Below are positions 9,092 through 41,400 of a DNA stretch of 64,000 nt, piece by piece. This stretch comes from Pseudorasbora parva (Eukaryota; Chordata; Actinopteri; Cypriniformes; Gobionidae): the NCBI RefSeq assembly GCF_024679245.1, contig NC_090187.1, positions 25,458,495 through 25,522,494 of the forward strand. Direction: 5' to 3'. Within the stretch, counting starts at the first letter, position 1, and the number at the start of each line of letters is the position of its first letter. A model generated the notes under the pieces. That model was not told where the DNA came from. It worked only from the letters and a program-made list of their open reading frames with translations, and did no database searches. Made by a program: the position numbers and the translations under genes.

Positions 9092-9229
9092 GACATCTAA
9101 GACACACAACATCATGGCTCTGACCACATCTGTCTAATATATAAATCAATTTTGACAAACTTTTGCATCTACTCGTACATATAATCAGTGACAGGACCAG
9201 TAGGTTAACAAGATATTATTTTTAAAGTA

Positions 9230-10857
9230 CAGTATTGTTCAAAATAATAGCAGTGAAATGTGACTAACCAGAATAATCAAGGTTTTTAGTATATTTTTTA
9301 TTGCTACGTGGCAAACAAGTTACCAGTAGGTTCAGTAGATTGTCAGAAAACAAACAAGACCCAGCATTCATGATATGCACGCTCTTAAGGCTGCGCAATT
9401 GGGCAATGAGTTGAAAGGGGTGTGTTCAAAAAAATAGCAGTGTCTACCTTTGACTGTACAAACTCAAAACTATTTTGTACAAACATTTTTTTTTTCTGGG
9501 ATTTAGCAATCCTGTGAATCACTAAACTAATATTTAGTTGTATGACCACAGTTTTTTAAAATTACTTGACATCTGTGTGGCATGGAGTCAACCAACTTGT
9601 GGCACCTCTCAGCTGTTATTCCACTCCATGATTCTTTAACAACATTCCACAATTCATTCACATTTCTTGGTTTTGCTTCAGAAACAGCATTTTTGATATC
9701 ACCCCACAAGTTCTCAATTGGATTAAGGTCTGGAGATTGGGCTGGCCACTCCATAACATTAATTTTGTTGGTTTGGAACCAAGACTTTGCCCGTTTACTA
9801 GTGTGTTTTGGGTCATTGTCTTGTTGAAACAACCATTTCAAGGGCATGTCCTCTTCAGCATAGGGCAACATGACCTCTTCAAGTATTTTAACATATGCAA
9901 ACTGATCCATGATCCCTGGTATGCGATAAATAGGCCCAACACCATAGTAGGAGAAACATGCCCATATCATGATGCTCTCACCTCCATGCTTCACTGTCTT
10001 CACTGTGTACTGTGGCTTGAATTCAGAGTTTGGGGGTCGTCTCACAAACTGCCTGTGGCCCTTGGACCCAAAAAGAACAATTTTACTCTCATCAGTCCAC
10101 AAAATGTTCCTCCATTTCTCTTTAGGCCAGTTGATGTGTTCTTTGGCAAATTGTAACCTCTTCTGCACATGCCTTTTTTTTAACAGAGGGACTTTGCGGG
10201 GGATTCTTGAAAATAGATTAGCTTCACACAGACGTCTTCTAACTGTCACAGTACTTACAGGTAACTCCAGACTGTCTTTGATCATCCTGGAGGTGATCAT
10301 TGGCTGAGCCTTTGCCATTCTGGTTATTCTTCTATCCATTTTGATGGTTGTCTTCCGTTTTCTTCCACGTCTCTCTGGTTTTGCTCTCCATTTTAAGGCA
10401 TTGGAGATCATTTTAGCTGAACAGCCTATCATTTTTTGCACCTCTTTATAGGTTTTCCCCTCTCTAATCAACTTTTTAATCAAAGTACGCTGTTCTTCTG
10501 AACAATGTCTTGAACGACCCATTTTCCTCAGCTTTCAAATGCATGTTCAACAAGTGTTGGCTTCATCCTTAAATAGGGGCCACCTGATTCACACCTGTTT
10601 CTTCACAAAATTGATGACCTCAGTGATTGAATGCCACACTGCTATGTTTTTGAACACACCCCTTTCAACTAATTCAACTAATTGCCCAATTGCACAGCCT
10701 TAAGAGCGTGCATATCATGAATGCTGGGTCTCATTTGTTTTGAGAATCTACTGAACCTACTGGTAACTTGTTTGCTACGTAGCAATAAAAAAATAAACGA
10801 AAAACCTTGATTATTCTGGTTAGTCACATTGTACTGCTATTATTTTGAACAAGACTG
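9230..10857. mobile_element. Complete Tc1-like transposon with IR/DR ends
   Basis: The element is bounded by TA dinucleotides (9228-9229 and 10858-10859). The outer tips CAGTATTGTTCAAAATAATA and CAGTCTTGTTCAAAATAATA differ at one base. Each terminal inverted repeat is about 210 bp and carries a second inner copy of the same motif (about 9421-9444 and 10640-10660). This is the IR/DR arrangement known from Sleeping Beauty-type elements. One transposase gene lies inside on the minus strand. The element begins about 140 bp beyond the esterase stop codon. Confidence 0.92.
9527..10522 (-). CDS. Tc1-type DD34E transposase, uninterrupted
   Basis: A single 331-residue open frame from ATG to stop. The N-terminal part is helix-turn-helix ([20 protein letters not shown] onward), followed by an AT-hook-like GRKRK, a second helix-turn-helix, then the catalytic domain. 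The acidic triad is in place: Asp in LWTDESK, Asp in QQDNDPKHT, and Glu in NPIENLWG 34 residues after the second Asp. The length is slightly short of the 340 aa usual for Tc1 elements, but no frameshift or stop is seen. It would bind the inner and outer direct repeats of the element and insert it at TA. Activity is not shown by sequence alone. Confidence 0.93.
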
Positions 10858-10956
10858 TATGTAATGCAAGAATGACTTAAGCATCCATTACTTTTTTGGG
10901 GCCACTACGTTTAAACAGCAGTGTATAGAAATTACACATATTATAGGCTTGGAGGT

Positions 10957-20400: not shown

Positions 20401-20420
20401 AATAAATCTAAATAAATCTC

Positions 20421-21052
20421 AAACACAGTTTAAGATATTTTATATTTTAGTCCCAGAGCAAATGCAATCTATGCACACTTTACTGTCCATGTCCAAAAAG
20501 GGAATAAAAACATAATCAAAGTAGTCCATATGTGACATCAGTTAGTTGATTAGAATCTCTTGAAGCATCGAAAATACATTTTGGTCCAAAAATATCAAAA
20601 ACTACGACTTTATTCTGCATTGTCTTCTATTCCTTGTTTGTGTTCAATCATCAAATAAAGATTCAAACGGTTATGAATCAGTGAATCGATCAATGATTCG
20701 GATCGCCAATGTCACTTGATTTTAGCAGTTTGACACGCGATCCAAACTGTTAAAATCACGTGACAATGGCGATCCGAACCATTGATCGATTCACTGATTC
20801 ATAACCGTTTGAATCTTTATTTGAGGAACACGGAAGAGAAGACAATGCTGAATAAAGTCGTAGTTTTTGTTATTTTTGGACCAAAATGTTTTTTCGATGC
20901 TTCAAGAGATTCTAATTAACCCACTGATGTCACATATGGACTACTTTGATGATGTTTTTATTCCCTTTCTGGACATGGACAGTAAAGTGTGTATAGACTG
21001 CATATGCTCTGGGACTAAAATGTAAAATATCTTAAACTGTGTTCGAAGATGA
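20421..21052. mobile_element. Large snapback element (arms about 300 bp)
   Basis: The left arm starting 'aaacacagtttaagatattt' is mirrored by the right arm ending 'aaatatcttaaactgtgtt'. In between, 'gactttattctgcattgtct', 'gattcaaacggttatgaatc' and other blocks are mirrored about a centre near 20737. The right flank continues (to about 21135) into the common cyprinid end 'tttggctgaactaaccct'. The matching left end is missing, so the element looks truncated on that side. Confidence 0.75.
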
Positions 21053-29422: not shown

Positions 29423-32400
29423 TCACTCATCATCTCCTACAGCATACATGTCAGCCAGTCTCCTGAACTGAGATCCCCAGTTCTGCAGATACTGGAAGTC
29501 CTGATCTCCATCGCTGATGGACGACTGTAGAGAGCTGAGAGATCCAGCTTCAGATCCCTCACCCTCATGAGCAAACACTAGCACGGAGTCATACGGCGCC
29601 ACATAGTGGTCATCATCAGCTGTGCACAGATTCTACAGAAACACAGAATCCAATATATTAAATGTGCATTTAACTCATGATCATGATGATGATGGTGATT
29701 CTGTTATGGATGTGTCATTGAATCTTTTGTTGGTCCGACCCCTATTCTTTTCCGTTGTTCCAGAGACAACAAGTATTATTAACTTGTAGAAATCATGGTG
29801 GCTCTCATTAACATATACACACAAACACTCTTACTATACATACTTCGTAAATGAAGTGTCCAATATCTTCATTTTCCTCTGGATGTTGGCGATAGAAGAC
29901 CGTATGCAAGGGTGGTGGGGCAATATCTGTAGAGAAAATCTCTGGTCCCCTGCACAACAGCATGATATCATAGTCCTGTAACAAACACATGTACATACAC
30001 AACAAAAACACAGAGTACAGTAAGGCTTAATAATAATAAATCGCTTCAGTGGATTCATTGAACATGACATTAGAAAGTCCATGTGCACCTGGTCCTGTTC
30101 GCCGCCTCCTTCCTCATTGTAACACAAAATATTGTCCCTGTCTTCTTGTTTCTGGCTAAACTGTTCCGACTTTCTCCCACACCTTCTCTTCAGGTAAAGA
30201 AACAGCAGCAGCACTAAAAAAAGAAGAAATATTTATATTAGTGCTGGAGAAAAATGTATTGTGATGAATTGCATCAAAATCCAATTAATCCAAAATAAAA
30301 GTTTGTTTACATAATATATGCATGTATATATTTAAGAACATTTTTATAGTTTTATAAAAAATATATCTATTTATATATAAATTATATATACAGTGTAGCA
30401 TGCAAATATTTCTTAAATATATACATACTTGTGTATTTATATACACATAATAATTATATGTATATTACACATAGATTATGTAAAAACTAACTTTTATTTT
30501 GGATGCGATTAATTGATTGCCCAGCACATATTTATAATATATTAAAGTACAAAGCAGTTCTTTAAATTGTAATTATATTTCACAACATTATTGTTGTACC
30601 ATATGTTTGATTAAATAAATGCAACCTTGGTGAGGAACTCTTATGCAAAATAAATAAATAAATAAACCTTTAACTTAAATGGTAGGTTACAAAAAGATTT
30701 GCAAATATATTAAGGCATTAAAGTGTCATATTTAGGTTTATACATCTATATTCAAAATGTTCTTGTTTGTAAACCCCTATTTATGGGTTGTTTGCTTACC
30801 AAGAATGCATAAGATAGCTGCTAAAACATAGAGGGACAGGATGGCGATGTTAGCAGCATACACACTGCTGGAGCAGGTAACATCATCACCTTTACAGTCA
30901 CACACCTCCACTATGATAGAACTGTCCTGAAATAACATCTTAGAGTCGTACACACGCAACAGAAGGCTGTGTTCGCCAAGAGCCAAACGTCTGAGTGGTC
31001 TCAACCACACCGCACAGCCTGAGAATTGAGAACAGTGTGAGATATCTAATTTACTTAAAACAGATGAACAATACTTGATGTTAGTTCTCTTACTGGGGTT
31101 GCTGATGATGGTCCAGTTGCTTTGATATTCTTTATGTAGCTCTGTGATGAATGGTGGGCCGTTTTCTGGCCCATCCGGATCTGTGATGGTCAAACAAATG
31201 GGCTTTGGTTCTGTAGAACATATTGGGACTCTGCCCTGCTCCAGCGCTGGAGCGTTGTCATTAACATCCAAAAGCGTGATCACTAATGTGCCTGTTCCTG
31301 TGGCTGGCTCATCATCTACAGAAAGAAATACATTGCAACAAATTGAAGCTTGATGCCTTGGTCAGACTAATTTATGAAGTGTGCAGTTTAAAAAAAAAAG
31401 AGAAGAGTAAAATTCTGTCATTTATTATTCATTTTTGACCTTCTTCTGTAGAACACACAGGGAAATGTTGAGCACAAAATCTACCCTGCTTCTTTCCAGT
31501 CCTTACTGGTAAATTACTATTAAAGGTGTCCTAGAATGAAAAATTGAATTAACCTTGCCATAGTGAAATAATAAGAGTTCAGTACATGGATATCACATAC
31601 TGTGAGTCTATTGCCTCCTAACTTCTTATGTAAATCTCGTGAATCAAAAACACCACGGAAAAATAAGTGCTTTTCAACATAACGCCAACCGTGACGGAAG
31701 CTTTGGGGATCATTTATATGCACGCCCCCAACATTTGCATCTGTCCAAACATGTTCATTGTCAGGCCGAACTGACGAAGCCGAATCATTGAGACTGCAGG
31801 TAAAGACACTCGAGGATAGCAAAAATGGCAGCTCTCATGACACACGTCATGTTTAGGCTGTGCAGGGGACTGTTGTCATATGTCAACAGTCATGGTTGAG
31901 GTTTATTATAATCGAATACCACAACAAATCGTTCATTTGTTCGGCCCATTTCAAGAAATCTTCGCTCGGCATCTTAAACTGAAGAAAGGGGCAACTGTAT
32001 TCCTGCAAGCAGTAACTAGTGATTTATCCACTTATTGACTAGCTGTTTAAACAATTTCTGATTAAACTGAAAGTTTCTTAGAGACCGCATTGTGGGGCGA
32101 TGCGCAAAAAAATGACGCAAGATGCCAGTACAGTAACAATAGGAAACTCCAAGTACCATACAAAACTAAATAGTGTGTCTAATGACAAAGGTTAATATTA
32201 TTTTGTATTACAAAATACAACCGTAGATACGTTACAGATCGTTCACTCGATCATTGTAGCAAACATCACCTTTTCTACCATATAAGTTAAAACGACTTAA
32301 ATGCAGCTTGTTATGGGAGGCCGTTTCAGCATAAAAACGTTCCAGCCTTACTCGTCGTAATTATATTTTTACTAGTAACAATTCAATTAAAGAGCTCTAT

Positions 32401-35400
32401 AATTTAATTTGTACTAGTAACAATTACAATTATAGAGCTCTATAATTCAATTTTTACTAGTAACAATTATGATTGTAGAGCTCTCTAATTGTATTATTAC
32501 TAGTAACAATTCCAATTAGAGAGCTCTACAATTCATTTATTACTAGTCATATGTCTCCATTGACTTCCATTCATTTTTAATTATAGAGCTCTGTAATTCA
32601 ATTGTTACTAGTAACAATTGGGATTATAGAGCTCTCTAATTGAATTGTTACTAGTAAAAATTACAATTGTAGAGCTCTCTAATTGAATTCTTACTAGTAA
32701 CAATTGGGATTATAGAGCTCTGTAATTCAATTGTTACTAGTAACAATTACGATTAGAGAGCTCTCTAATTGAATTCTTACTAGTAACAATTCAATTAGAG
32801 AGCTCTGTAATTCGATTATAGAGCTCTACAATTACACATATCCTTAATGTGTATTTTTACTAGTAATAAATCATTTGAAGAGCTCTGTAATTCAATTGTT
32901 ACTAGTAAGAATTCAATTAGAGAGCTCTCTAATCGTAATTGTTACTAGTAACAATTGAATTACAGAGCTCTATAATCCCAATTGTTACTAGTAAGAATTC
33001 AATTAGAGAGCTCTACAATTGTAATTGTTATACTAGTAACAATTGAATTACAGAGCTCTATAATTAAAAATGAATGGAAGTCAATGGGGACATATGACTA
33101 GTAATAAATGAATTGTAGAGCTCTCTAATCATAATTATTACTAGTAATAATACAATTAGAGAGCTCTATAATTATAATTGTTACTAGTAAAAATTGAATT
33201 ATAGAGCTCTATAATTGTAATTGTTACTAGTACAAATTAAATTATAGAGCTCTTTAATTGTATTGTTACTAGTAAAAATATAAATACGACGAGTAACGTT
33301 GGAACGTTTTTATGCTGAAACGACCTTCCATAGCTTGTTTATTGGTGTTTTCAGATCATCCGCCCATGAGAGCTCCCGTGCATATGGTTGCTAGATTGGA
33401 CATGTTTAGGTAAAACATTGGATAGCATACGCTTTTTTCACAGAAAAGCTCTGTTTGGGGGATTTGATATGATTGAAATCTGGCAACCGCACAAACACAA
33501 GCTCTTTCTCGTGCATGGATGATCTGAAAACACCAATAAACAAGTAGGCTGCATTTTATCTCCATTTGAGATGTTCTGCTTAAAGTGTCATTCAGTCGGT
33601 CTGTGTTCTGTCAGGATGGTCAGGACTCACGAGCCTCTTCGCTGAACAACTGAACTGCTGTGAGCTGCTGAATTAAGCCAATCAGAGCAGAGCTCAACAT
33701 TAATATTCATGACTCTTCCAAATAGGGCAAAAACAGAGCATTACATCCTATAGGGACAATTTATAGGGTTGTAAATGGACCTGTAAAACTGTATCAGGAC
33801 CATTTTTGCCCTTAAATAAGCCACATTCCCTCTATGTAGATATCAGAGAACAATTTAACATATTGTTTCAAATCATTCTAGGACACCTTCAAGAGATCGA
33901 TCCTATGTGAACATGACTTTTCAAAAAACTGGCAAATCGGTTCTGGCAATTTCCCAGTATAAGTAGTAACATTACCTTGTAGCATTGCCACATAAATTGG
34001 TACACTAAGGGGTAGGTTGTTTAAATTATTGTTGCATATGTATTGTTGATCCTTTTTTTTGTTTTACCCTATTGGATGTTGTCTTAACGTGTATAGGTGT
34101 CTGACCCTGAAACAAACTCTCACGAGATTGTGAGCGAGTCCTTGCATCAAAAAATGTTGATTCTTTAATAGAGCAAGTATTTTTTGAGTGTGTAACTCCT
34201 CAACTTATTTCAGACTCGGAGAATGTTACAACCTGTAAATTACTGGGAAGATGCTGTGTGTATACAAAGAACAGGATCACCGGTATGAGCACAGGGTCAG
34301 AACGTAAAGTCTGACGCAAGAAGTCTGATTTGGGTCAATCAAAAAGCTCAGTCTGAGCTGTTAATAAAAAGTTATGTTTTATCTCTTTTTCTATATAAAC
34401 AAGTGTTAGAAAGACATCTGGACGACTGTCGTGCCATCAGTGCCGTGGCTCTGGAGTATGTATGTGTATTTAAGAGCAAAACCGGATTCTGTGTAATCAT
34501 CCCTTACGCCTGTCACTCAGAAGTAAAGAATAAAAAAAGTTTAGTCAAATTGAACAGATAATGAAATAAAGCGTTTCTTCTCATCCAGGTGGATGAAGAA
34601 CACAGACTAGCATTTAAAAGAACTGTATGTAAGAATTGTATTTCAATTTATAATAAAATGGCCGTGATTTGTCACTAGACTTTAAGAAATCATGTTCATT
34701 TCAAATACTTATATCACTGACAACAGTAGTCCAGTAAATTTTTTGTTGTAGCCTTCAACTGTTGACATGTTGTGTTTCTAGTTACCACAGCTGCAGATCT
34801 ACAAATGTTCCTGCTGGATCCTGCAAGATCTGGCAACCTCGAGTCAAGGGGGAGGGGATACACCTCTCTACAGTCATTTGAAAGTGATTGCAGTACCAGT
34901 TTTGGCAACAATCTTACATACATTTCATTTAAAGGTCATTTAAATGTCAGAAATTTCCTTTTTGGGTTTCATTTTTCATTTCAACTATCCAAGTCTTTAA
35001 ACATCTAGATATTTTATTAAATTACCATTGTCGTATGCAACTACTAAGACTGTGTACTGTCCATCTTTTATAAACAAGGCCTCTCTGTCCAGTGAGCTCC
35101 TGATTCTGATGAGTCCAGTGTCCTCTGAGATCTCCAGCCATTTTGCAAAATCATGCAGCAACTTATATCTAGTATCAAAAAAAAAAAAAAAAAAAAAAAT
35201 GAGCATGACAGAAAAAGTGGTGCATAAATGATAAATTATAAATAATTAAAAAATTTATGAAAATGTGAATCATTCAATACCATATACATCAAAGTACCAC
35301 TGTTAAAATGGTGCCACCACAGTACTTTATTGTAAAGGCAATTTGTGATAAATAAAAACAGGTTTAGTTGCACAAACAAATGATTAATTCAAATTATTAA

Positions 35401-38400
35401 TTCAATTATTAATTCAAAATAAAATAACTATACCCAGACATCCAGCATTTCAATGTTTACTGAATCAACATCAGGTATCAAGGTTGAATCACTGTTGAAA
35501 TTAGTTTTAATTTAACGAAGTGGATCAATGTTGATATTAAATTTGTTCTAAGTTTGTTCATATATTGTTAACTTTTTTAAAACAAACATTTAGCATTATT
35601 TCAACATTGAAAAATCAACGGACATTATTACAAATTTGGTCATGGTAGTAGGTCACATGATAAATACGATAGATAAATACAAAAAAATGGGGGTTTCATA
35701 ATATGACACCGTAGAATTGTGCTGTTTTGTGTATCATGCAGGCAAAACCTTAATTTCTGCTCTCTAGCAGTGTCTGGGTCTTTAGCTGTGAATTTTTGGA
35801 TGGTGCTGCCCACCACAAGGTCCTCATGAACTTCGATCAATTTCTCTGCAGGCTCAAAGACAGGCGGCTCGTTTACATCCTGCACAGTGATGGTGACGGT
35901 AGCGGTAGAAGTGGAGGTGGGCAAAGGAACAGCAAAAGGAACCTCATTCTCTACCACTACCAGCAGAGAGAAATTGTTGGCCTGCTCGAAGTCCAGACCC
36001 TAAAAATACATGGACAACTGGATTTTATTTTCTAGGGCTCCAAAAAAAAAAATCATCATCACTAGAAGGCTGCACGCTGACCCAAAATGTTTAGGGTTAA
36101 TAATATTTATTACTTTTTTTTAAGGCTGCATTGATTTAATAAAAATAAATTTTAGCAGTCATTATTCCAGTCTTCACATGATCATTGAAAAATCATTCTA
36201 ATATGCTGATTTGCTGCTCAAAAAACATTTATTATTATAAATGTAGAAAAAAGTTCAACTTTGATGAATAGTTCAAATGAACAGCATTTACCTGAAAAAT
36301 AAACCTTTTACTGTGACTTTTGATCAATTTAATGCATCCTTGGTGAATACAATTAATTTCTTTCCAAAATATATAAATAAAATTATTACAGACCCTAAAA
36401 AAATCTAACAAAAGGTTTCTCAGTGGTTTACAATAGTATTAAATGTACTTAAAAACATACTAAAAGTTTACAAAAGTTTGACTCCAAGAAAGTCCCCATT
36501 TTCAAAATGGCGACCGTCAGGTCCTTAAAATGACCATTACTCATTTGTATTCTTCCTAGACCAGGAATACTGGTGCATCATGATACATATTTTGGCCATG
36601 TAATATTCTAATTAGTATATCTGCATGATAAATAAGCAATTACAAGTACAATTATATATTAAGGCAATTGGTTACAAGCATATTTATGAGAAAAAAATAA
36701 GTACAATTTCCATTAAGTAATTGCATTTCTCCTTTCTCATATCATTTTGCCTACACAGCAAACTCCACACTCAAGTGTGTTAAAATAACTTTGAAGCAGT
36801 GTTAAAGTTAATAAGATAATTAAATGATTGAGTCGTGATTGACAATTAATGATGAACACCTGCTGTTAACAAGTAGAGTCACATATCATGGCGATTAGTG
36901 TTTGCTGTAGTTGACTTTTACTTTTAAAACTTTGTTTTAAATTGGGCACCAAGTGCTGAGGGGGGCACCACGAGAATTTTCTCTCAGCATATATTTAGTT
37001 TTGTATGTGGGTATATTCACTTTTAATGTTGTGATAATTCCCTCCATCCTGCTGGGGCCCGTGCTGATGTTGAAGTACCCTTCCTCGTTGCCCTGGACGA
37101 TGGTAAACTTCGCCATCGAGTTTGCAGTTAAAGGCTCGTCTCTATCGGTGACAACCAACCTTGCAACAATTTCCCCAACCCTATTTTCTTGTACTGTGCT
37201 AGAAAACTGCCAAAACACACAAACAGGCACTTCATAAGCACTCAATGCCAGATGTTTGGAAAATAAAAGTGGAAGTTTAAAGTTGGAAAGTTTAAAGCCA
37301 AAATAACAATTGACTCGCCTTTCTTTTGCTGAACTTAGGTGCGTGATCATTGATATCAGTGATTTTGATGATGACAGTACAGGTGGAAGAAAGACCGCGA
37401 CCATCCATATCTGCCGCCTCAACAGCCAGCGTATACACATCATGAGTCTGTTACCATAGGGATGGCGACAGAGACAGATATGTTCAGATGATGGTTATAA
37501 AACAACTGTTTAATACAATGTTTCCCGACTCGGTTCATGGAGGCACACCAACAGTACACATTTTGGATGTCTCCTTCATCTGACCCATTTATCTCTGGTC
37601 TTTGAGCCTAATTTTTGGCCTGCATGTTTACATTCTCTTTAGACTGTTGGTGATCACTTTACTGTGCATATGGTAGACCCTCTGGTTTTGAATGGCCATG
37701 CTATTAAAATTATTTGGCAGCATGGACAAAGATAATAATCTGGTAAAAAAAAAAGATAGATAAAAATCTGCCTGAATGTACAGTATATACCAGAAAATAA
37801 CAGTACTTTTAGGTTCTAGATCTAGAATGAATTCTTAAGTGAAATAAAGTAGTGCTGTAAGATTGCATGAATTTAATTAATTAATGAGAGATTTACATTT
37901 TTATTTTGTTAAAGCTGCTGTCCATAACTTTTTTGTCTTGAAAATTTACAAAAATTATATAATGAGAATGTACAACATGAATCCATTTTCCAAACTGTGT
38001 TTTTGTTTTACCCTGAATCATTATGGTACACTTATGATAAGTGTTTATATTGGGACTATTTCAGAGCGGTCTGGTAGGCTGCGGAGGAGCAAAGTCACTG
38101 CGTTACTCGCCATAGACATAAACAGAGAAGTAGCTCCGGCAGTTCTGTTTATCAAATTATTTTGGCCCGATTTCCTACCTTCCGACAATCCTAGCTCGGT
38201 CCCCATTATCATGATGGTTCTAGAGATTATCTTATCAGAATTTCCTGTGGTGTAAAGTGTGTTAAGAGTGTCCGAATCTGCTCGAAAGAACATCAGAGCC
38301 GTCCCGATCGCGAATCGTAAATATTCAACATGCTCTTCTTATTTAGTATTTTTGCTTGTGTCCAGTTCAAATATATGAAAATTCTTAAATCAAGATGTAT

Positions 38401-41400
38401 TTACAAGATAAGTAAAATGACATAAGATATTTTTCCTTGTTTTCTGGGAAAAAATATCAAAATGAAGTGAGTTTTTGCTTAAAACAAGCTAAATGATCTG
38501 CCAGGGGGGTGAGCAAAATCTTATTTCTGTTTGGGACGAAAACAAGAAACCAGATTTCAACTAGATTATTTTTCTCACCCCATTGGCAGATCATTTGCCA
38601 AAATTTAAGCAAAAACTGACTTCATTTTGATTTTATTTACAACAAAACAAGAACAAATATCTTATGTCGTTTTACTTATCTAGTAAATGCATCTTGATTT
38701 AAGAATGTTTAAATCTTTAGACTGAAAACAAGACAAAATTACTAAGTAAAAAGAGCATTTTTTGCAGGGTATTCTATTTTGCCTGGAAATGCTTCCAACA
38801 CGCTTTCATGTTGAGTGAAAAATAGGCATCTGTTCTATTTCTAGCATGCACGTGTTTTCAGCGTGGCTCAATCAGTGCCTGAGACGCGCGTCACACTTGC
38901 AGTGTGTCACCGGCCTGAAGTCTCGCGAGATTTCCTGTATTTACAGTTCGAGACACTGGTTTAAAATCTGTTTGTGTGTGGTGTGCTGTCTATGTCACAT
39001 CATGGCACACCACACACTATAGGAGCAAAACGGTTCAATTTAGGATTATTTGTCCTCATGTTTGTGGTCTATCACATTTTGAAAATCTTATAAGATGTAA
39101 AAAATATTTTGGTGTGTACCCAGCATTATGGACTGCAGCTTTAACTATGTATAAATGTGTTATTTGTATATTTTCATTTTACTATTTTATCCATTTTTAA
39201 TTATTTTATTATACATTTTTATTTCAGTTTTAGTATTTTTAGTACTTTTTAGAGACTGACACGGAAGAGATGAAAGTCGTTATTTTAGTTTTTTTATTGG
39301 TCTTATGGGTTTGGAACGACATGAGGGAGAGAAATTAAAATTTTGGGTAAACCAACCCTTTAAGTTTTAGTACCTCTCTGTCCAAAATGCTCATAGAGGC
39401 CAGACTGATGACTCCATTTGATGGGTCAATGTTGAACACTGCATCGTTGGGTTTCTGTCTCACCAGTTTGTAACGCACAATGGCGTTTAAAGTATCAGGA
39501 TCATCCAGATCATCTGCTGTCACTTGTATGAGAGGCACGTCTGTATAAAACATTTTTTTTTGTGTTATTTTAACTTGATACAAACGTTTAGTTATTGAAT
39601 ACATTTGTGAGATGGATAGAAGAATCTTCATATCCTACTTTGTTTTGCCCTTTCCATGACCTCTCCCATAAAAGGATTTTGGGTACAGGAGGGTTTGTGG
39701 TCATTTTGGTCAAGCACTTTTATGGTGAGTTGGATAGGGGTTTCAGTGTAGTCTTGATCTTCTGCTGAGGCATGAATTGTGAGCTGCCCAAGTGCACACA
39801 CATAAACTTAAACATTTTTTTTAATATATATATAAAGTTACACACTAACTCAAACTGTCTTAACATGTTATGCTTGAGATACAGGTTCTTAGATTATGAA
39901 AGGTCACTCACAACATATTCTTCAGTTTCCTCTCTGTCCAGGTATTTGGTGACCAACAACATGCCTGAATATTTTTCTACTTTGAAAAGGCCTTCGGGCG
40001 GCTGGTCGGCTCCAGCACCTGTTATTTCATAAACCATTTTCATGGAATCACCAGCGGTGGACTTCATCTGTGAAGCAAAATAACACACAAAAAAACATAT
40101 TTTTTGGAATGTTAAAACAAAGACAGAGCAAAGAGGACAATAATATGCAAATTAAAAATAGTATACAAAGCAAAAAGGACACAAAGAGAGATACACCTTC
40201 ACCACTTGCTTTGGGAATGGGCCTTTGTCATTTTCTGAAATGCTGATCGGGGGAATCAACCAATCCCTCTTTCTTCTGATCATACCATTATATGGCTTTG
40301 GAAAGACCCACATCAAGACATCACGGGTCTCTGGAATTGTGCTATTCTGAATGACAGAAATGTAAAGAGAATAACCACATATGAAAACATTTAAAAAGAT
40401 TTTGAACTACAGTACAATAGTTAAAAGAACTCTTTAGTTGCATTTTAAAATCCAAAATACATCAAGTTGCCTTAATTTCAAAATGTTTGTTAGGTTTAAA
40501 ATTATATGCCAATAGATATACTATTCAAAATTATGATTAAAATGTATTTTGAAACATCTTATTTTGAAACAATGCATTGGTAAAACATTTTCATATTTGA
40601 TGGGATGATTATGAACTACACTTACTACTATGAACAAGAAACTGACTTGAATCCACAATTATTATTATTATTATTTATTTTTGTACAGGTTATATGTAAT
40701 GGCAGATATACCACTCGTTTTTGCAATGAACATCCAACAACTTTTTGGAACTACTAAATACTTTTAGAAATAATAAGGGAAATCAGAAAAAAAAGGTTTG
40801 TAAATATATCGGTGTAATTCATATACCTGCAAAAGCAGGCTGTTTCTCTTGTCAAGCACAAACTGTCCATGTTGAATGGCTCCTAAATACTCTAGAAGAA
40901 TTTTTCCTTGGATTGTGAATGTGAATATCACCTGTTAAAACAGATGAGCATGCATCATTTTTTTGTATGTGAATTCAAATAATAATAACTTTTAAAAAAA
41001 TCAAGTAATCAGACAATTCATGACTTTTCACATGAATCAGGTTGCATACAATTCCTATATTTAAGTTAAAACACAGAATACTATATTAATTCTGATGCAT
41101 TCATTTTCTCTCCAGTCTGTAATAAAATCTGTAGACTTAACTCAATTTAAGGAGTTATACACTCACACAGCAATTCATTTAAAAATAATGACATGACTCA
41201 GTAATAAAAATAGTTTCCATATAAAACAGTACATGTAAAATATTTCCTTTTAATTAAACTCCAAAATATAAATTCCATTATCTGGACTTAACTTTTCCAG
41301 ACAGAAATACACAGATGATGGTGTCGTCGTCACAACATGCATACAAAAACAATATAAGAAATAAATAAATGAATTAAAGAACACTCACCAGAGAGAAAAC

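What the first reader, a model, noticed from the sequence alone, without database searches (positions are those of the whole stretch)
32313..33331. A 1-kb perfect-symmetry palindrome made of 43-bp doubly palindromic units, moved as a hAT-like element
Twenty ACTAGT sites mirror each other: for each pair, left start plus right end equals 65642-65644. The element's own edges (32313 and 33331) sum to 65644 as well. AGAGCTCT dyads alternate with ACTAGT, so a dyad occurs every 21-22 bp, about two helical turns, on one face of the helix. A perfect 8-bp target duplication bounds it. Ordinary MITEs are single hairpins; here symmetry exists at three scales (hexamer, unit, whole element). Possible roles, all inference: an array of transposase binding sites, a hairpin precursor of small RNAs, or an A-to-I editing substrate inside the cadherin pre-mRNA.
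Basis: partly seen in the sequence, partly recalled or inferred. Interest (0 to 1): 0.85.

Follow-up and report, generated by a model that had tools for sequence, protein, structure and literature searches.

The report
Palindromic fish jumping gene, IS3EU-like
A one-kilobase, almost fully palindromic piece of fish-like DNA is a recently mobile, protein-less jumping element that looks like it is moved by an IS3EU-type enzyme (not the hAT type first proposed), and its repeated small palindromes look like sites that the moving enzyme needs.

Summary
The mirror sums are right; "perfect symmetry", "8-bp duplication" and "hAT-like" are not borne out. The arms are 95-96% complementary on two offset axes, because one arm has an extra 43-bp unit; three inner site pairs mirror each other only through periodicity. 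The genome is held: 136 tip matches, reversed-pattern control 0. TATGG..CCATA ends with 6-bp duplications fit IS3EU (PMC12730594, PMC10045372). Copies run from 305 bp to 7.4 kb. In eight copies of 1146 bp a mini-hairpin sits at the midpoint; both arms of the one tested match the same end of a longer, non-coding member. All 34 keep 5-7 dyads within 200 bp of each end. Variants shared between copies avoid dyad cores (3 vs 10.1 expected); private ones do not (19 vs 18.4). Best reading: non-autonomous foldback-type IS3EU-like transposon with a transposase-binding dyad array. No transposase was found; binding is untested.

The parts
32312..33332 (.). whole element, corrected edges (TATGG...CCATA)
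32306..32311 (+). left target-site duplication GCTTGT (6 bp)
33333..33338 (+). right target-site duplication GCTTGT (6 bp)
32312..32370 (+). left terminal inverted repeat up to the first dyad
   Evidence: tip 29-mer (up to 3 mismatches) occurs 136 times in the genome, control 0
33274..33332 (-). right terminal inverted repeat from the last dyad
32371..32827 (+). left array of alternating ACTAGT and AGAGCTCT dyads, 43-bp unit
32859..33273 (-). right array, inverted copy, one unit fewer than the left when both are compared with a 1146-bp copy
32548..32584 (+). non-array insert CATATGTCTCCATTGACTTCCATT..., left copy
   Evidence: read; present in both arms
33060..33096 (-). the same insert, inverted right copy
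32833..32853 (.). central mini-hairpin TACACAT-ATCCTTA-ATGTGTA, at the midpoint (within 0.5 bp) of all eight 1146-bp copies; 21 bp from the midpoint here
33339..33545 (.). rest of the small inverted-repeat element into whose end this copy inserted (far edge approximate)
   Evidence: joined flanks align with its other end

Best explanation
A non-autonomous, foldback-type DNA transposon of an IS3EU-like family. It encodes nothing and is moved by a transposase supplied elsewhere, by a cut-and-paste-type reaction that leaves 6-bp (sometimes 7-bp) target duplications. Its palindromic form arose when the array-bearing end of a longer member was joined to an inverted copy of itself around a natural mini-hairpin. 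The dyad units next to both ends serve as multiple binding sites for the (presumably dimeric) transposase. Shown: dispersed copies with target duplications, ends, duplication length, dyads next to both ends in all 34 complete copies, similarity of both arms (of L007 and the window copy) to one end of the long member, depletion of shared variants in dyad cores. Inferred: IS3EU transposase as mover, binding of dyads, fold-back copying, direction of descent (long form to palindrome).
For: TSD exactly 6 bp in 21 and 7 bp in 7 of 34 complete copies, 8 bp in 0; in the 27-copy set 16 exact 6 bp and 6 exact 7 bp, against 1 and 0 of 702 mismatched-flank pairs. T..A ends 34 of 34. IS3EU is printed as 6-bp TSD with TAYGG..CCRTA (PMC12730594) and TA..TA ends (PMC10045372) (passages). 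136 tips, control 0. Recent movement: copies at different places, L010/L011 (both on C4, 2.4 Mb apart), L005/L018 and L008/L009 (different contigs), differ by 0-0.5% per arm. Arms of L007 match the left end of long member L073 at 96-97% without gaps (537 and 573 bp) and its right end at 90% with gaps; in 8 of 8 copies of 1146 bp the colinearity runs about 750 bp through the mini-hairpin and then stops sharply. 5-7 dyads within 200 bp of each end in 34 of 34 (the two stretches overlap in the 305-bp copy) while the total runs from 8 to 68. After removing changes that unit exchange could explain, shared variants hit cores 3 times of 23 (10.1 expected, p=0.0026), private ones 19 of 42 (18.4 expected); Fisher p=0.013 (27 copies). 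Precedent: Galileo's long repetitive TIRs hold multiple transposase-domain binding sites (PMC3688188, abstract).
Against: No transposase gene with these ends was found. The two long members read have no stop-free frame over 173 aa and no credible Pfam domain in six frames of their interiors; at least three more long tip pairs could not be fetched. The IS481 family search scored 68 of 7967 candidates; the one I read (C22) is a Gypsy-type retroelement. No exact tip with another base after CAGC exists. hAT families with 6-bp duplications exist (PMC12730594). Three of 34 copies have no recognisable duplication and three more have one mismatch. The constraint test is small (23 shared variants), copies are related, and singletons are only a proxy for post-insertion changes. 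The palindrome could be the ancestor of the long member's left end rather than the reverse.
Confidence: 0.7

Rival explanations
1. Same anatomy, but the mover is a hAT-superfamily transposase of the hAT6 type (6-bp duplications).
For: hAT6 families with 6-bp duplications are in print (PMC12730594, passage); the IS3EU mover was not found.
Against: TATGG..CCATA ends fit the printed IS3EU signature; hAT ends are recalled as CAG/TAG-type; at the corrected edges 0 of 34 copies have the usual 8-bp duplication.
Confidence: 0.12
2. The dyad array has no function in movement: it is satellite-like DNA that rides between ends of about 58 bp that alone are needed, and core conservation reflects young age and unit exchange.
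For: Length changes are mostly whole 43-bp units, with some half-unit steps; exchange among units can explain 84 of 107 shared variants; foldback repeats can seed satellites (Tetris, PMC4079207, passages).
Against: All 34 complete copies keep 5-7 dyads by each end, the first at 59 bp in 32 of 34; non-exchange shared variants still avoid cores while private ones do not.
Confidence: 0.3
3. The hairpin acts at the RNA level in the host gene's intron (small-RNA precursor or A-to-I editing substrate) and is kept for that.
For: Either strand folds with over 470 pairs, -707 and -698 kcal/mol.
Against: 0 of 55 Rfam matches reach a gathering score; G.U pairs are few on both strands (9 and 5), giving no strand signal; the copy is one of many dispersed ones; any long inverted repeat would fold likewise.
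Confidence: 0.05

Closest known systems
IS3EU superfamily (Repbase; described in PMC10045372 and PMC12730594, passages read)
   Same: 6-bp target duplications, TATGG..CCATA ends, inverted repeats over 30 bp.
   Different: No transposase seen here; the passages that I read mention no dyad arrays or kilobase palindromes.
Foldback elements: Galileo (PMC3688188, abstract) and Tetris (PMC4079207, passages) of Drosophila
   Same: Long terminal inverted repeats with tandem repeats; in Galileo the repeats hold transposase-domain binding sites; Tetris copies are non-coding and its TIR repeats vary in number.
   Different: Galileo is of the P superfamily and Tetris has 8-10-bp duplications; here 6-7 bp and TATGG ends. 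Here the units are themselves palindromic and the commonest length is a nearly complete palindrome with a 7-nt loop.
Palindromic MITEs of fish such as Angel (recalled, not read)
   Same: Hairpin-like, non-coding, many copies in a fish genome.
   Different: Tandem dyad units, 1.1 kb length, IS3EU-type ends.
hAT MITEs (recalled)
   Same: Short non-coding inverted-repeat elements.
   Different: At the corrected edges the classical 8-bp duplication is absent in 34 of 34 copies.

Membership tests
IS3EU | target-site duplication usually 6 bp | tested here: met
   21 of 34 exact 6 bp, 7 of 34 exact 7 bp, 3 more 6 bp with one mismatch, 3 none; 8 bp in 0
IS3EU | TAYGG..CCRTA (TA..TA) ends with TIR over 30 bp | tested here: met
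   T and A in 34 of 34; ATGG was part of the search tip, so only the outer T and A are independent; the 100 tips listed match over 29 bp without mismatch, and the window arms are 96% complementary over 302 bp
IS3EU | IS3/IS481-like DDE transposase, in the element or in a partner with the same ends | tested here: inconclusive
   none in the two long members read; genome search dominated by long integrase-bearing frames, the one read being Gypsy; PF13683 search did not complete
hAT | 8-bp target duplication (5 or 6 in hAT5 and hAT6) | tested here: not met
hAT | hAT transposase in a partner | not tested
   no hAT family search of the genome was made
Dada | 6-7-bp duplication inside small-RNA genes, no TIR | tested here: not met
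   TIRs present and the duplications of 34 copies share no sequence; the flanks were not searched for small-RNA genes; Dada features from PMC3706591 (passages)
Foldback architecture (structural, not phylogenetic) | long terminal inverted repeats built of tandem repeats around a middle domain | tested here: met
   L072 and L073: arrays at both ends, about 6 kb middle without a domain found
Mutator-type foldback | 8-10-bp duplications (as for Tetris, PMC4079207) | tested here: not met

The most novel reading that the evidence does not exclude
The first foldback lineage assigned to IS3EU: long ends made of palindromic dyads at two-turn spacing that work as a cooperative loading array for an IS3EU transposase, kept by selection in the mobile lineage, and spread as nearly complete 1.1-kb palindromes formed by copying one transposon end back on itself at a pre-existing mini-hairpin.
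Probability: 0.35. Interest if true: 0.6.

Novelty: new variant of a known kind. Interest (0 to 1): 0.45.

Why it matters
Foldback transposons are put mostly in the Mutator superfamily, with exceptions (PMC4079207, passage). An IS3EU-like one would show that array-built ends arise independently of the transposase type. The copies give a natural test of whether repeats inside transposon ends are binding sites: private mutations in dyad cores occur at about the chance rate while inherited ones are depleted. It also shows that kilobase near-perfect palindromes with a 7-nt loop can spread in an animal genome.

Tried and rejected
hAT with an 8-bp duplication: rejected. Dada: rejected. Homogenisation of the two arms within a copy: arms differ 5.4% on average within a copy and 5.8-5.9% between copies, so no clear sign of it (27 copies). 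Centre-directed palindrome erosion: length changes of 10 bp or more fall all along the arms and the two centre bins are among the lowest, so not seen. Local dyad covariation (short hairpins as the unit of selection): not seen; complementary flank pairs are fewer than independence predicts, 204 vs 231 (S), 57 vs 174 and 335 vs 368 (X). Strand-specific RNA pairing: 9 vs 5 G.U pairs. Known RNA family: 0 of 55 matches at gathering score. Transposase inside the two long members: no credible Pfam match (one search gave three matches at E 0.027-0.071, each below its cut-off; searches gave none). Transposase by the IS481 model: mostly frames over 1000 aa; the one read is Gypsy. Copies outside this genome: none in viral contigs, plasmids or genome contigs, which hold no fish genomes as such. 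In print: tip and unit strings gave 7 papers, unrelated by title. Searches on fish IS3EU, foldback, Zisupton or palindromic MITEs listed 20 of 75, 13 of 13, 20 of 309, 7 of 7, 2 of 2, 16 of 16 and 20 of 116 papers, none of them such an element by title. Repbase and Dfam could not be searched.

The core-against-linker test in its first form (3 of 107 shared variants in cores, 33.6 expected; singletons 19 of 93, 29.2 expected) is inflated by exchange between units; I rely on the corrected form.

Rows dropped: L003 (same place as L018); loci without a facing tip pair in the fetched stretch are not counted as complete. Searches use 27 of the 34 complete copies; the other 7 (L043, L048, L055, L067, L068, L072, L073) come from later fetches. 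Only two of at least five long tip pairs were read.
Full report
What is there. At 32312-33332 lies a 1021-bp element made of two inverted arms of 43-bp units, each unit with one ACTAGT and one AGAGCTCT dyad, 20 of each in all. The symmetry is not perfect: the outer 302 bp and inner 165 bp of the arms are 96% and 95% complementary, with coordinate sums that differ by 41, because the left arm has one more unit. The periodicity makes the sites, though not the sequence, look mirrored throughout.

The ends. The genome that holds the window (1.23 Gb, 79 contigs) was searched: a 29-base tip pattern with up to 3 mismatches has 136 matches and its reversed control none (100 places listed). From all loci fetched, 34 distinct complete copies were extracted. 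With these bases counted in the element, the target duplication is exactly 6 bp in 21, exactly 7 bp in 7, 6 bp with one mismatch in 3, and not recognisable in 3; none has 8 bp. In the 27 copies flanks of different copies give 1 exact match of 6 bp in 702. The window copy has GCTTGT; its joined flanks align with the other inverted end of the small element into which it fell, apart from a 4-bp gap. Two copies sit inside a relative's end (L012, L073; and the flanks).

Superfamily. Print gives IS3EU 6-bp duplications with TA..TA ends (PMC10045372, passages) and TAYGG..CCRTA with inverted repeats over 30 bp (PMC12730594, passages). The element meets both. It fails the classical hAT length, the length given for the foldback Tetris (PMC4079207, passages) and the Dada description (PMC3706591, passages). 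The defining transposase was not found, so I call it IS3EU-like rather than an established member.

Anatomy across copies. In each of the 27 copies of the first set 65-95% of bases pair in one main stem. Eight are exactly 1146 bp between the ATGG and CCAT edges, with 93-95% of bases in the main stem and a 7-nt loop. Against one of these, L007, copies differ by 0.3-5% in substitutions and, in length, mostly by whole units (41-43, 84-86, 128-129 bp), with some steps near half units (21, 105, 151, 237, 280) and two others (insertions of 121 and 15), spread along the arms. Copies at different places with arms 0-0.5% different (L010/L011, L005/L018, L008/L009) point to recent movement. The shortest complete copy found is 305 bp, the longest 7371 bp.

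Long members and origin of the palindrome. Two long members, L072 (6940 bp, duplication AAATAG) and L073 (7371 bp, duplication CGCTGG), carry unit arrays at both ends and about 6 kb between them, matching each other in pieces at 89-98%, with no stop-free frame over 173 aa and no credible Pfam domain in six frames. Both arms of L007 match the left end of L073 at 96-97% without gaps, and its right end at 90% with gaps; the window copy's arms also match the left end better (95-96% against 89-91%), with unit-sized gaps. The eight 1146-bp copies run colinear with that left end for about 750 bp, through a mini-hairpin TACACAT-7 nt-ATGTGTA at their midpoint, and then stop at the same place. So the second arm is an inverted copy of the first end, not the other native end brought close by an internal deletion. 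Fold-back copying at the mini-hairpin is the simplest mechanism (inference); descent of the long left end from a palindrome by recombination within the arrays is not excluded.

Are the dyads functional? Three observations. First, all 34 complete copies keep 5-7 dyads within 200 bp of each end, the first at 59 bp from the left edge in 32 of 34, while totals run from 8 to 68. Second, across 27 copies, variants that exchange between units cannot explain fall on dyad cores as expected by chance when private (19 of 42, 18.4 expected) and rarely when shared between copies (3 of 23, 10.1 expected, p=0.0026; Fisher p=0.013; by position). That is the pattern of constraint while the lineage was mobile and none after insertion. 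Third, flanking bases of the dyads do not covary in the complementary sense, so sequence rather than local hairpin formation is kept. The numbers are small and the copies related; I take this as moderate support for protein-binding sites, in line with Galileo (PMC3688188, abstract), and not as proof.

Context. The copy lies near cadherin-coding sequence on the minus strand (Pfam cadherin at 36937-37494); the intron placement rests on ORFs, not transcripts.

Verdict. A real, apparently recently mobile, non-coding transposon with an unusual foldback design and IS3EU-type ends; ordinary in being one of several palindromic elements in this window, uncommon in its dyad arrays and in the evidence that these were under constraint.

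Noticed in passing
window 9228-10859: Tc1-like transposon with an uninterrupted 335-aa transposase frame (9527-10534, minus strand; Pfam HTH_Tnp_Tc3_2 and DDE_3) between inverted repeats of about 220 bp, 89% alike.
   Followed up: no
window 20419-21046: Another complete palindrome, 628 bp, arms about 90% complementary; no dyad arrays seen in its sequence.
   Followed up: partly
window 38327-38761: Palindrome of 435 bp, arms 77% complementary.
   Followed up: no
window 33339-33545: Small inverted-repeat element whose end was the target of the insertion; its ends share AAATGCAG..CTTGTTTATTGGTGTTTTCAGATCATCC.
   Followed up: partly
L012; L073: Two family copies inserted inside the terminal inverted repeat of another copy (target GAAACG and CGCTGG): chance or preference for own ends.
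   Followed up: partly
L073 1100-6890; L072 460-6630: Interiors of the C18 and C8 long copies match in pieces at 89-98%, with exon-like stretches by eye but no long frame; possible captured host sequence.
   Followed up: partly
G000 C3:17303451-17306541 and C18:1927547-1948417: Clusters of several copies and arrays within about 3 and 21 kb.
   Followed up: no
window 32548-32584 and 33060-33096: A non-array insert CATATGTCTCCATTGACTTCCATT... at the mirrored place in both arms; also in L073's left end. Origin unknown.
   Followed up: no
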